6,533 nucleotides of DNA from Bifidobacterium breve (GTDB lineage Bacteria; Actinomycetota; Acidimicrobiia; Acidimicrobiales; Ilumatobacteraceae), in NCBI GenBank assembly GCA_943325435.2, contig CALPPK020000071.1:1-6533 (forward strand). The letters are read 5' to 3'. The notes under the pieces are model-generated. The model did no database searches and was not told where the DNA came from. It worked only from the letters and a program-made list of their open reading frames with translations. Positions 1,314 through 3,505 of this stretch are shown here, one piece after another (positions within the stretch are counted from its first letter, which is position 1; each line of letters starts with the position of its first letter). The translations under genes and the position numbers were made by a program.

Positions 1314-1329
1314 AGATCTAGTTCGTACG
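1303..1329. terminator. Possible bidirectional hairpin between convergent genes, containing both stop codons
   Basis: The arms CGTACGA (1303-1309) and TCGTACG (1323-1329) pair perfectly. Inside, the plus-strand stop TAG (1311-1313) pairs with CTA (1318-1320), the complement of the fae TAG, around a 4-nt AGAT loop, with a small asymmetric internal bulge. The position between two genes only 4 nt apart suits a shared terminator. Neither side has a U tract, so termination would be weak or Rho-assisted. Confidence 0.45.
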
Positions 1330-1809
1330 GAAATACGGGTTTGACGGATTAGTCATTGCCGCAAGTGCCTGGTTCATGTCAGGGCCAGCATCTCGAGCTT
1401 GTTTCAGTGCAGCGAGAGTGGCGTCTCGATTGTTTGAGAAAACTTCCTCTTCGTTATCGGCAGATGGATTCACCCATACCGCAACTATGAGAACAAGCGA
1501 ATCAACGTCGCCATCGAACAGTGAATTCTGATGTGCGAGTCCGACACCAGCTGCAACACCAGCCTGTGCCCCACCCCATGTCAGCTCACCATGACGATCA
1601 TTTGCAATAGCTGCTTTGTTAACAAACAATGTGAACGGCACAACGGGCATGTTTGGTTGTGCAACTGCAACAAACGGAACATGACCTTCACGCGGTGTGG
1701 CTAGTGCTGTTGCCCATGCGGTGCCAACCGGGCCATCGCGAAGACCCAGCACAACGTTGATGTGTGCAGCATTCGCGCCTTCACCAACAAAACCTTCACC
1801 AATTTTCAT
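1318..1809 (-). CDS. Formaldehyde-activating enzyme (Fae) homologue
   Basis: This 163-residue protein is close to the usual length of about 170. It aligns by eye along its whole length with Fae, which condenses formaldehyde with tetrahydromethanopterin to methylene-H4MPT. Matching landmarks: IGEGFVGEGANAAHINVVLG (3-22), including H16 at the place of the histidine proposed as catalytic in Methylorubrum Fae; DGPVGTAWATALATPREGH (25-43); QPNMPVVPFTLFVNKAAI (51-68), equivalent to the PN-x-P-x-x-P-x-TL-x-x-NK-x-x-I block; and WGGAQAGVAAGVG (78-90), equivalent to the GPAQ helix, with Gly replacing the usual Pro. The C-terminal 50 residues, with VWVNPSA and an Asn/Pro-rich end, are less typical. Its ATG overlaps the upstream oxygenase stop as ATGA and no ribosome-binding site is seen, so translation is probably coupled. 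Family membership is strong. Activity with H4MPT, with folate or as another aldehyde-binding protein remains open; the only C1 genes nearby are folate-type (metF, purH). A specific symbol such as fae would overstate what is known. Confidence 0.85.
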   Translation of the reverse strand: MKIGEGFVGEGANAAHINVVLGLRDGPVGTAWATALATPREGHVPFVAVAQPNMPVVPFTLFVNKAAIANDRHGELTWGGAQAGVAAGVGLAHQNSLFDGDVDSLVLIVAVWVNPSADNEEEVFSNNRDATLAALKQARDAGPDMNQALAAMTNPSNPYFRTN

Positions 1810-2519
1810 GCGGGTAACCGGCCGTATCGGCCCATACGCAGCGCATCGTTGGAAATAGTGCCCGGCTTCGTGTCATACGCGAGCAAGGCAACATGCCGAG
1901 GAACTGCACCTGACACGCGCGACACACGGTGATAGCTATTGCGTCCGTTAAACACCATCAGCGTTCCAGGTGTCATTGGTTCGGTACGAACTAAATCCGG
2001 ACGATCGCCCCGACGCACCGCAGCGACAGTGTCGGCATTCTCTTCCGTGGCTGTGCGAATACGCGATGCGTTCTCAAAATGCCCACCTTCTGACGAAGTT
2101 TGTAATGCAATGGAAACGACGAAATCAGTCTGATCAAAATGCCAACCCAGTTCATGGCCATCACGCATAACAGCAAGATTCAGTGCGCCAAAAGGATCTG
2201 CATAACGAAACAGTTTCTCTTCACCCAGAATCTTTGCAACGAATTCCATCAGTGGATCCCACTCATACAATGCGCGGATCATACTGTCTGTTGGAAATTG
2301 GTCATACGCCACGACTTCAAGATCAGCATTCACGGTCGTGTGATACGCCACTTTTGCTAATTCATCACATTCGGCAATCAACTCAGTGATTGCATTCTCA
2401 CGAATGAACCCAGGCAAAATTGCGATATTTTCCTTCGTAAAGGTGTCGCTCAATTCCCTATGTAATTCAGCACTATCTAGCGGCCACCTGTCTGTATCGA
2501 CGAGTGCCGCAACGCTCAT
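1806..2519 (-). CDS. 2-oxoglutarate/Fe(II)-dependent oxygenase, BesD/HalB-like (ArpA-type) family
   Basis: This 237-residue soluble protein should couple oxidative decarboxylation of 2-oxoglutarate to hydroxylation or a related oxidation. Iron ligands read as H127 and D129 in LGWHFDQTDF (124-133) and the distal H197 in FNGRNSYHRVS (190-200); R208, 11 residues further on, is the expected 2-oxoglutarate-binding arginine. The surrounding text (GWHFD..DF.V.IALQ..SEGG.F, PGTLMVFNGR.S.HRV, VALLAYDTKPG) resembles the family that includes the amino-acid halogenase BesD. Halogenating members replace the aspartate of HxD with Gly or Ala to make room for chloride. Here Asp is kept, so hydroxylation (or oxidative demethylation) is expected instead of chlorination. 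Substrate is unknown; family precedent is free amino acids. The ATG shares one base with the mdh stop (TAATG), and its own stop overlaps the Fae-like start. This marks a coupled three-gene unit. The family match is from memory of motifs, not a search. Confidence 0.85.
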   Translation of the reverse strand: MSVAALVDTDRWPLDSAELHRELSDTFTKENIAILPGFIRENAITELIAECDELAKVAYHTTVNADLEVVAYDQFPTDSMIRALYEWDPLMEFVAKILGEEKLFRYADPFGALNLAVMRDGHELGWHFDQTDFVVSIALQTSSEGGHFENASRIRTATEENADTVAAVRRGDRPDLVRTEPMTPGTLMVFNGRNSYHRVSRVSGAVPRHVALLAYDTKPGTISNDALRMGRYGRLPA

Positions 2520-3505
2520 TAAATGAGGCCTAGCTTCTTTACTTCGTCACGCTCTTCAACAAGCTCGGCAACTGATGCATCAATGCGTGAGCGGCTGAAA
2601 TCATCAATGTCAAGACCCTGCACAATGCTGTACTTGCCGTCCTTGCAAACACATGGGAACGACGAAATGATGCCTTCGGGAACGCCATAGCTTCCGTCAG
2701 ATGGAATTGCCATTGACACCCAGTCACCCGGGGCAGTGCCAAGAACCCATGAATTCATGTGATCAATTGCGGCATTTGCTGCTGAAGCTGCTGATGACAA
2801 ACCACGTGCCTTGATGATGGCTGCTCCGCGCTTTGCAACAGTAGGAATGAAATCATTCTCAATCCATGCCTGATCGTTAACCAAAGCAGCTGCATTCTTG
2901 CCATCAACTTCACAATGGAAAAGGTCTGGGTATTGAGTGCTTGAGTGGTTACCCCAAATGGTCATCTTCTTAATAGAAGTAACTGGCTTGCCAACTTTGA
3001 CTGCCAACTGTGTCATGGCGCGGTTGTGATCAAGTCGAGTCATCGCGGTGAAACGACTTGGGTCAAGACCCTGTGCATTGTTCATTGCAATTACTGCGTT
3101 GGTGTTCGCTGGGTTTCCAACAACCAAAATCTTTGCGTCTTTCTTTGCTGCAACGCCAAGTGCTTTTCCTTGTGGTTTGAAAATTCCGCCGTTTGCGCTG
3201 AGCAAGTCGCCGCGCTCCATGCCGTCTTTGCGTGGCATTGCGCCAACAAGGAAGGCAGCGTCAATATCGCCAAATGCAGTTTCAGCATTGTCGGTGCAAA
3301 CAACACCAGCAAGAAGCGGGAATGCGCAGTCATCAAGTTCCATACGAACGCCTTCTAACGCGCCAAGTGCTGGAGTGATTTCCAACAGTTGAAGAATGAC
3401 GGGCTGATTGGGACCGAATACTGCGCCTGAAGCGATACGGAAAAGGAGGCTGTAGCCAATTTGGCCGGCTGCGCCGGTTACGGCAATACGAACTGGTGAT
3501 GTCAT
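2519..3505 (-). CDS. mdh: NAD-dependent malate dehydrogenase
   Basis: This 328-residue enzyme has the typical length for the cytosolic-like bacterial Mdh group. It interconverts malate and oxaloacetate in the TCA cycle. Visible features: the nucleotide-binding GAAGQIGY loop (11-18); the acidic E42 in LLEITPALGALEGVRMEL, favouring NAD over NADP; the substrate arginines R92 and R98 in AMPRKDGMERGD; GNPANTNA (130-137); D159 and R162 in RLDHNRA; the catalytic H187 in IWGNHSSTQYPD; and the SDGSYGVPEGIISSFPC block near the C-terminus. All catalytic residues are present. I chose the ATG at 3505 over an in-frame ATG at 3535, because the extra MYPILPTLRD has no family match and would cover the -10 element. 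No ribosome-binding site precedes the chosen start. The stop overlaps the oxygenase ATG by one base, an unusual partner for Mdh. Oxaloacetate and 2-oxoglutarate are both TCA metabolites, but a direct functional link is not evident. Confidence 0.96.
   Translation of the reverse strand: MTSPVRIAVTGAAGQIGYSLLFRIASGAVFGPNQPVILQLLEITPALGALEGVRMELDDCAFPLLAGVVCTDNAETAFGDIDAAFLVGAMPRKDGMERGDLLSANGGIFKPQGKALGVAAKKDAKILVVGNPANTNAVIAMNNAQGLDPSRFTAMTRLDHNRAMTQLAVKVGKPVTSIKKMTIWGNHSSTQYPDLFHCEVDGKNAAALVNDQAWIENDFIPTVAKRGAAIIKARGLSSAASAANAAIDHMNSWVLGTAPGDWVSMAIPSDGSYGVPEGIISSFPCVCKDGKYSIVQGLDIDDFSRSRIDASVAELVEERDEVKKLGLI

What the first reader, a model, noticed from the sequence alone, without database searches (positions are those of the whole stretch)
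1318..3505. Coupled mdh - BesD-like oxygenase - Fae homologue cassette
Three minus-strand genes overlap (TAATG between mdh and the oxygenase, ATGA between the oxygenase and the Fae homologue), implying coupled translation and a shared job. A Fe(II)/2-oxoglutarate oxygenase can release formaldehyde by oxidative demethylation, or make a hydroxylated product that later releases it. Fae is the classical formaldehyde-capturing enzyme. In the bes pathway, the BesD product is cleaved by BesC with formaldehyde release, so formaldehyde near this oxygenase family has precedent, although no BesC-like gene is visible here. The pair could be an oxidative amino-acid or methylamine-type route with built-in aldehyde handling. 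I know of no description of such a pair.
Basis: partly seen in the sequence, partly recalled or inferred. Interest (0 to 1): 0.8.

Follow-up and report, generated by a model that had tools for sequence, protein, structure and literature searches.

The report
Oxygenase paired with formaldehyde-enzyme relative
Bacteria that seem to lack the usual partner cofactor of a formaldehyde-capturing enzyme keep a relative of that enzyme next to an iron oxygenase, which points to an undescribed way of breaking down small nitrogen compounds.

Summary
In detail: mdh (2519-3505), a Fe(II)/2-oxoglutarate oxygenase (1806-2519) and a Fae homologue (1318-1809) overlap on the minus strand. The unit is oxygenase + Fae; mdh is a neighbour. 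Tandem pairs occur in 62 of 80 fetched loci (24 without mdh nearby). In 247 genomes of the window lineage's class, 30 have both genes, 3 Fae only, 12 oxygenase only, 202 neither; in 9 of the 30 they are apart. The oxygenase has the BesD fold but an HxD iron site, so it is hydroxylase-type. The Fae homologue has the Fae fold and catalytic His, yet Mch (H4MPT marker) was found in 0 of 79 Fae-bearing genomes. In other phyla the same oxygenase clade is followed instead by an undescribed aspartase-superfamily lyase, in 5 of 12 loci with an aldehyde dehydrogenase; 0 of 23 Fae genomes have that lyase. Fae relatives without the oxygenase also exist (8 of 8 further Actinomycetota genomes). I think the oxygenase hydroxylates next to nitrogen (probably N-methyl) and Fae handles the carbinolamine or formaldehyde with an acceptor other than H4MPT, perhaps tetrahydrofolate. 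Substrate and acceptor are inferred, not shown.

The parts
1318..1809 (-). Fae homologue (163 aa); conserved His16 codon at 1762-1764 (equivalent of Fae His17)
1806..2519 (-). Fe(II)/2-oxoglutarate oxygenase of the BesD/HalD fold, hydroxylase type (237 aa); probable Fe ligands His127 (2139-2141), Asp129 (2133-2135), His197 (1929-1931); Arg208 (1896-1898) probable 2OG contact
2519..3505 (-). malate dehydrogenase (mdh), neighbour whose stop overlaps the oxygenase start; judged not part of the functional unit
   Evidence: PRK05442 553.5 bits; not found within 1.2 kb upstream in 24 of 62 tandem oxygenase-Fae loci, 5 of them cut short by the contig

Best explanation
The oxygenase and the Fae homologue form a two-gene module for breaking down a small nitrogen compound, probably an N-methylated amino acid or betaine. 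Step 1 (fold and iron site supported by sequence and model, reaction inferred): the HxD Fe(II)/2OG enzyme hydroxylates a carbon bound to nitrogen, most likely an N-methyl group, giving a carbinolamine (N-CH2OH). Step 2 (inferred): the Fae-like protein, with its conserved His, takes the one-carbon unit from the carbinolamine or from the formaldehyde it releases and passes it to an acceptor that is not tetrahydromethanopterin, most likely tetrahydrofolate. In other phyla an aspartase-superfamily lyase, in some loci with an aldehyde dehydrogenase, stands in Fae's place behind the same oxygenase. mdh is a chromosomal neighbour only.
For: Functional link: 62 of 80 loci tandem; pairwise distances of the two proteins correlate (Mantel r 0.80, 0 of 2000 permutations, 59 pairs). 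43 of 50 genomes have one Fae and 50 of 50 one oxygenase; in 40 of the 43 they are neighbours (39 tandem, 1 divergent). 30/3/12/202 co-occurrence in 247 genomes, Fisher p 1.4e-25, not corrected for kinship; 9 of the 30 are not adjacent, in G053 276 kb apart on one contig. Chemistry: BesD fold, HxD in 27 of 27 rows, so hydroxylase-type; Fae fold and His kept. Not H4MPT: Mch in 0 of 79 Fae-bearing genomes. Not RuMP: Hps over its cut-off in 0 of 44 (17 weak matches under it). Substitution: the aspartase-like clade is in 10 of 41 genomes, each time directly behind the oxygenase, and in 0 of the 23 Fae-bearing ones; a betaine-aldehyde-dehydrogenase-like ALDH lies near it in 5 of 12 lyase loci (L054, L060, L125, L126 adjacent; L075/L122 4.8 kb off), and relatives L062 and L073 carry OpuAC-type betaine ABC genes. 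Partners switch on the oxygenase tree. 43 oxygenase positions are fixed alike in 7 lyase-linked and 11 Fae-linked rows and none is fixed but different. In the window lineage the pair lies with MTHFR, which uses methylene-H4F, on one strand.
Against: No assay; the substrate is unknown and nothing here shows formaldehyde. No Fae is known to use H4F (recalled); PMC11748545 reports only that this has been suggested for Fae-like groups. 3 of 33 Fae-bearing genomes of the class and 8 of 8 further Actinomycetota genomes have Fae without the oxygenase, so this Fae family also has other partners. 12 of 42 oxygenase genomes of the class have no Fae over the cut-off, 10 of them with divergent oxygenases (E 7e-54 to 2e-72). 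Several oxygenase loci have neither Fae nor the lyase beside them (9 of 80; L127, L128, L131, L133, L134, L135). An aspartase-type lyase is not an obvious successor to simple N-demethylation, and 7 of 12 lyase loci show no such ALDH in the stretch held. MTHFR linkage is absent where the pair lies elsewhere.
Confidence: 0.36

Rival explanations
1. The Fae-like protein is a direct lyase on the hydroxylated product and handles no free formaldehyde and no pterin. Fae-like protein and the aspartase-like enzyme are then unrelated enzymes for one C-N cleaving step, and the aldehyde goes to an aldehyde dehydrogenase.
For: Exclusion in the same gene position (lyase in 0 of 23 Fae genomes, in 10 of 18 others), switching on the oxygenase tree, no fixed differences between the oxygenases of the two classes, no H4MPT marker, and an aspartase-like pocket changed at three positions in 12 of 12 sequences while GSS, K and N are kept (roles of these residues recalled).
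Confidence: 0.28
2. The Fae homologue is a formaldehyde sensor, buffer or regulator rather than a catalyst, protecting the cell from what the oxygenase makes.
For: PMC11748545 names regulatory or sensing roles as suggestions for Fae-like groups 2-4; Fae occurs without the oxygenase in several genomes.
Against: His16, Lys65, Thr60 and Gln82 are invariant in 22 of 22 rows; the 163-residue protein is a single Fae domain.
Confidence: 0.12
3. The module makes, rather than breaks down, a small molecule: the oxygenase hydroxylates a free amino acid as BesD-family hydroxylases do, and the Fae-fold protein tailors it.
For: Closest solved structures are free-lysine halogenases and a lysine hydroxylase.
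Against: One copy each, kept in assemblies down to 1.3 Mb (incomplete MAGs); I noticed no biosynthetic cluster around the pair, without a systematic search; ALDH, betaine ABC and lyase genes accompany relatives.
Confidence: 0.12
4. The genes are only neighbours, carried along in conserved synteny.
For: 38 of 62 tandem loci share the mdh neighbourhood.
Against: 24 tandem pairs without mdh found nearby; 9 of 30 genomes of the class sample keep both genes apart; exclusion with the lyase.
Confidence: 0.05

Closest known systems
BesD/HalB/HalA/HalD lysine or ornithine halogenases and the BesD-like lysine hydroxylase (7jsd, 9oet)
   Different: 12-18% identity; HxD instead of the halide-binding HxG site (recalled) of the halogenases; another gene context; the Asp after the iron-site triplet in HalB and lysine hydroxylase is Gln or Met here (its lysine-binding role is recalled)
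Formaldehyde-activating enzyme Fae (EC 4.2.1.147), M. extorquens 1y5y/1y60
   Different: 29% identity, where archaeal Fae has 50-51% to the same enzyme (PMC11748545); AHID becomes (A/S)HxN and AQHG becomes AQ(A/L)G; H4MPT marker Mch in 0 of 79 genomes
Fae-like groups 2-4 of unknown function (PMC11748545, section 20 read)
   Same: Fae homologues outside the two groups with known function; the paper's set includes actinomycetes
   Different: The parts I read name no oxygenase partner; I could not place this Fae in its tree
Aspartate ammonia-lyase / class II fumarase superfamily (for the alternative partner)
   Same: PF00206 (L060); GSS...K.NP loop kept in 12 of 12
   Different: 358 bits against an aspA cut-off of 681 (L075); L075 lacks about the last 65 residues of aspartase; three substrate-site positions changed in 12 of 12

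Membership tests
Formaldehyde-activating enzyme (H4MPT-dependent Fae) | Fae fold | tested here: met
Formaldehyde-activating enzyme (H4MPT-dependent Fae) | NCBIfam equivalog score | tested here: met
   Window 124.8 against 118.05; of 10 relatives 6 are over and 4 under the cut-off
Formaldehyde-activating enzyme (H4MPT-dependent Fae) | Catalytic His (His17 in M. extorquens; role recalled) | tested here: met
   His16 in 22 of 22 rows
Formaldehyde-activating enzyme (H4MPT-dependent Fae) | H4MPT one-carbon pathway in the same genome (Mch as marker) | tested here: not met
   0 of 50 and 0 of 36 genomes, 79 of these 86 Fae-bearing; the control rang in 3 of 14 named genomes, all archaea, with no methylotrophic bacterium among them that I could recognise; the window's own genome is not held; mtdB, fhc and H4MPT biosynthesis genes were not searched
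Formaldehyde-activating enzyme (H4MPT-dependent Fae) | Formaldehyde + pterin condensation activity | not testable with these tools
   Needs an assay
Fae-Hps / RuMP formaldehyde route | 3-hexulose-6-phosphate synthase | tested here: not met
   TIGR03128 over cut-off in 0 of 44 Fae-bearing genomes; 17 had weak matches under it, as had most control genomes
BesD/HalD family (fold family) | BesD-type fold over the whole chain | tested here: met
   PF23169 over cut-off
BesD/HalD halogenases | HxG halide site in place of HxD (recalled) | tested here: not met
   HxD in 27 of 27 rows; so the database name 'HalD/BesD family halogenase' on P0110, which reads WHFD, looks wrong
bes pathway | BesC-like and other bes genes beside the oxygenase | tested here: not met
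   None among the 7 window ORFs scanned; not searched genome-wide
Free-lysine hydroxylase | Lysine-binding residues of the solved enzymes | tested here: inconclusive
   Profile alignment is weak, E 0.0025; residue roles recalled

The most novel reading that the evidence does not exclude
A Fae-fold protein works as a pterin-independent C-N lyase on the carbinolamine made by a BesD-fold hydroxylase, and is interchangeable in evolution with an unrelated aspartase-superfamily enzyme. Fae would then be one specialised member of a wider family of carbinolamine enzymes.
Probability: 0.22. Interest if true: 0.85.

Novelty: new variant of a known kind. Interest (0 to 1): 0.68.

Why it matters
[quoted passage not shown] the passages name no dedicated enzyme for it). 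A Fae relative kept with one oxygenase in bacteria without the H4MPT marker gives both questions a concrete, testable system. It also warns annotators: TIGR03126 would name many of these proteins as the H4MPT enzyme, and one oxygenase is called a halogenase, although neither name fits the evidence here. Most loci come from lake and other freshwater or soil metagenomes, so the reaction may matter for dissolved organic nitrogen (speculation).

Tried and rejected
Rejected: (1) mdh as part of the module: 24 of 62 tandem pairs show none within 1.2 kb. (2) Halogenation: HxD in 27 of 27 rows. (3) H4MPT-linked formaldehyde oxidation and RuMP. (4) An ergothionase-like reading of the aspartase-like partner: no tool evidence, and a literature listing gave nothing that bears on it. 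(5) Oxygenase-Fae fusions: two genomes with long open frames that I checked by arithmetic (G070, G102) have the two genes in different frames; the others were not checked.

Led nowhere: searches of two open papers for BesD active-site residues (PMC10187165, PMC13244439) gave no residue details. Literature searches that could have shown the pair listed no paper describing it; I saw listings and, for three papers, passages. The library lacks most subscription journals, so absence from print is not proven. Fold searches compared only with solved structures. No Rfam, promoter or repeat search was run, as nothing pointed to RNA.

Limits: one search kept the best 80 of 133 loci; searches covered the genomes of 50 of the 80. 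Genomes are mostly MAGs of unknown completeness, so single absences are weak. The class sample is not corrected for kinship. A 34th Fae match in that sample (G285, E 9e-4, under the cut-off) was left out of the 33; G074 and G231 have two Fae copies each. In one search only part of the first-look candidates was scored in many genomes; the three Fae-only genomes were re-searched with all candidates scored, again without a match. Genome-wide Fae absence was tested only for G029, G030, G034, G036, G037, G040 and G050. On the tree, Fae-adjacent and Fae-elsewhere were separate labels, which raises the number of changes, and L066, labelled as without partner, ends at the contig edge. Gene calls come from simple scripts of mine and are noisy in high-GC loci; several neighbour names there rest on my reading of the sequence (those checked by HMM are).
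Full report
What is there. The window carries, on the minus strand, MTHFR (5516-6376), an acyltransferase (3569-5503), mdh (2519-3505), a Fe(II)/2OG oxygenase (1806-2519) and a Fae homologue (1318-1809); on the plus strand a DedA-type gene (293-919) and an SCP2-like gene ending at 1313. The overlaps TAATG and ATGA are as described. 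By record titles the relatives are freshwater Acidimicrobiia (Ilumatobacteraceae, acIV); the six nearest contigs encode a 93-97% identical oxygenase. No genome is held for the window itself.

The unit is the pair. A scan of genome contigs gave 133 confirmed relatives of the oxygenase, of which the best 80 were kept. In 62 of 80 the Fae homologue follows in tandem, -1 to 98 bp between match ends; 38 have mdh within 1.2 kb upstream and 24 do not (5 of the 24 have under 1.2 kb of upstream sequence). One further locus (L065) has the two genes divergent, 7 have an aspartase-like gene in Fae's place, 1 ends at the contig edge and 9 have neither beside them. Whole-genome searches for the genomes of 50 of these loci gave one oxygenase in 50 of 50 and one Fae in 43 of 50; in 40 of the 43 they are neighbours, in 3 (G027, G033, G042) they are on different contigs. 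In 247 genomes of the class of G008, which I take to be Acidimicrobiia, 33 have Fae over the cut-off, 42 have the oxygenase, 30 both, 202 neither (Fisher p 1.4e-25, without correction for kinship). Of the 30, 21 have the genes adjacent and 9 do not; in G053 they are 276 kb apart on one contig. Pairwise protein distances of the two genes correlate (Mantel r 0.80, 59 pairs). Pairs also occur in the class of G030 (Binatia by title: L129, L130) and in the phylum of G050 (Myxococcota by title: L132 and G046/L074).

The swap. Behind the same oxygenase clade, genomes titled Binatia, Obscuribacterales and Deltaproteobacteria have a lyase of the aspartase/fumarase superfamily instead of Fae: 7 of the first 80 loci and five further contigs, L120, L121, L124, L125 and L126 (L122 is the same contig as L075), 12 in all. 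Searched in 41 genomes, this lyase clade (48-100% identity) occurs in 10, each time directly behind the oxygenase; the next best matches are 44% (a fragment at a contig edge in G047) and 42%, which I take for ordinary aspartase or fumarase. None of the 23 Fae-bearing genomes in that search has a clade match. It keeps the GSS...K.NP loop but changes three substrate-site positions in 12 of 12 sequences (Thr to Ile, Asn to Ala or Ser, His or Gln to Cys; their roles in aspartase are recalled). An aldehyde dehydrogenase related to betaine-aldehyde dehydrogenase, below that family's cut-off (L060: 493 against 668.6 bits), is adjacent in L054, L060, L125 and L126 and 4.8 kb off in L075/L122; the other 7 lyase loci show none in the stretch held, some being short contigs. 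The same ALDH type stands next to the oxygenase in L073. L062 and L073 carry ABC transporter genes of the OpuAC betaine type. On a tree of 70 oxygenases lyase-linked rows fall in three places, one of them (L075, L126) inside a well-supported clade of Fae-linked rows; the lyase label needs 4 changes and the Fae label 6, so partners have probably switched more than once. Between 7 lyase-linked and 11 Fae-linked oxygenases 43 positions are fixed alike and none is fixed differently. I read this as the same or a similar oxygenase reaction with alternative ways to process its product.

Counter-evidence. Fae relatives also occur without the oxygenase: 3 of 33 in the class (G147, G195, G198) and 8 of 8 further genomes of the phylum sample, in which 17 of 396 have Fae. 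There they lie beside an enolase-superfamily gene (L171 by Pfam; L172-L175 by my reading of the sequence) or near arginase-family and aminotransferase genes (L170 by Pfam). In Acidimicrobiia where Fae is apart from the oxygenase, an acyl-CoA dehydrogenase lies next to it (L148 by Pfam; L137, L147, L156, L158 by reading). So this Fae branch is not tied to one oxygenase everywhere. Oxygenase loci L127, L128, L131, L133, L134 and L135 from the Binatia and Myxococcota samples have neither partner beside them.

Mechanism. Shown: co-occurrence, predicted folds, iron-site motif, conserved His, absence of the Mch marker in relatives, partner swap. Inferred: hydroxylation next to nitrogen (from aldehyde- and C-N-handling partners and betaine-type transporters), formaldehyde or carbinolamine as product, and H4F as acceptor (by exclusion and by MTHFR in the same strand cluster of the window lineage). 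Most likely reading 0.36; direct-lyase rival 0.28.

Novelty. PMC11748545 (passages and section 20 read) states that the functions of Fae-like groups 2-4 are unknown and that sensing or H4F-linked roles have been suggested. Its abstract says that predictions agreed with measurements if Fae1-2 was taken as H4F-linked, and that Fae1-2 failed to restore Fae function in complementation tests; a passage adds that it relieved methanol sensitivity on agar but not in liquid. PMC7073904 (abstract and passages) finds spontaneous formaldehyde-H4F condensation too slow for growth. Six literature searches listed no paper on an oxygenase-Fae pair; this library is incomplete. I rate it a new variant of known enzyme kinds in an undescribed pairing.

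Noticed in passing
window 1806-2519 against A1/A2 rows: The window's oxygenase subfamily (237 aa) lacks a stretch of about 23 residues (YLxxPDxxLPxDHPRR region) that the more distant relatives in the alignments have; possibly a lost lid over the active site.
   Followed up: no
window 1-222: Open-ended plus-strand ORF that reads like the C-terminus of a membrane pyrophosphatase (recalled motif; not scanned).
   Followed up: no
L170-L176: Oxygenase-less Actinomycetota keep a Fae relative beside a mandelate-racemase-type enolase-superfamily gene (L171 by Pfam, L172-L175 by reading) and, in L170, near arginase-family and class-III aminotransferase genes: a second undescribed Fae context.
   Followed up: partly
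L060 8776-10125, L075 1503-2735, L125 6730-7971 and others: Undescribed aspartase-superfamily subfamily with a changed substrate site; L075 lacks about the last 65 residues of aspartase.
   Followed up: partly
L054 15369-15827: HbpS-like (PF03928) protein several kb downstream of an oxygenase-lyase-ALDH cluster. EfgA, named in PMC8879981 in the formaldehyde response, belongs to a related DUF336 family (recalled).
   Followed up: no
L001, L002, L003, L026, L029, L031, L069 record titles: Genomes titled 'Bifidobacterium breve' carry loci like those of Acidimicrobiia; the organism names look like placeholders or mislabels.
   Followed up: no
P0110: A database names a member 'HalD/BesD family halogenase' although its iron site is HxD.
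   Followed up: yes
L152, L154, L155: Divergent relatives of the oxygenase in the same class lie beside a 3-hydroxyisobutyrate-dehydrogenase-like gene (by reading) or an M24 creatinase/prolidase-family gene (L155, Pfam).
   Followed up: partly
PDB 8ub7: A solved chain named Avd contains a Fae domain; whether natural fusion or construct was not checked.
   Followed up: no
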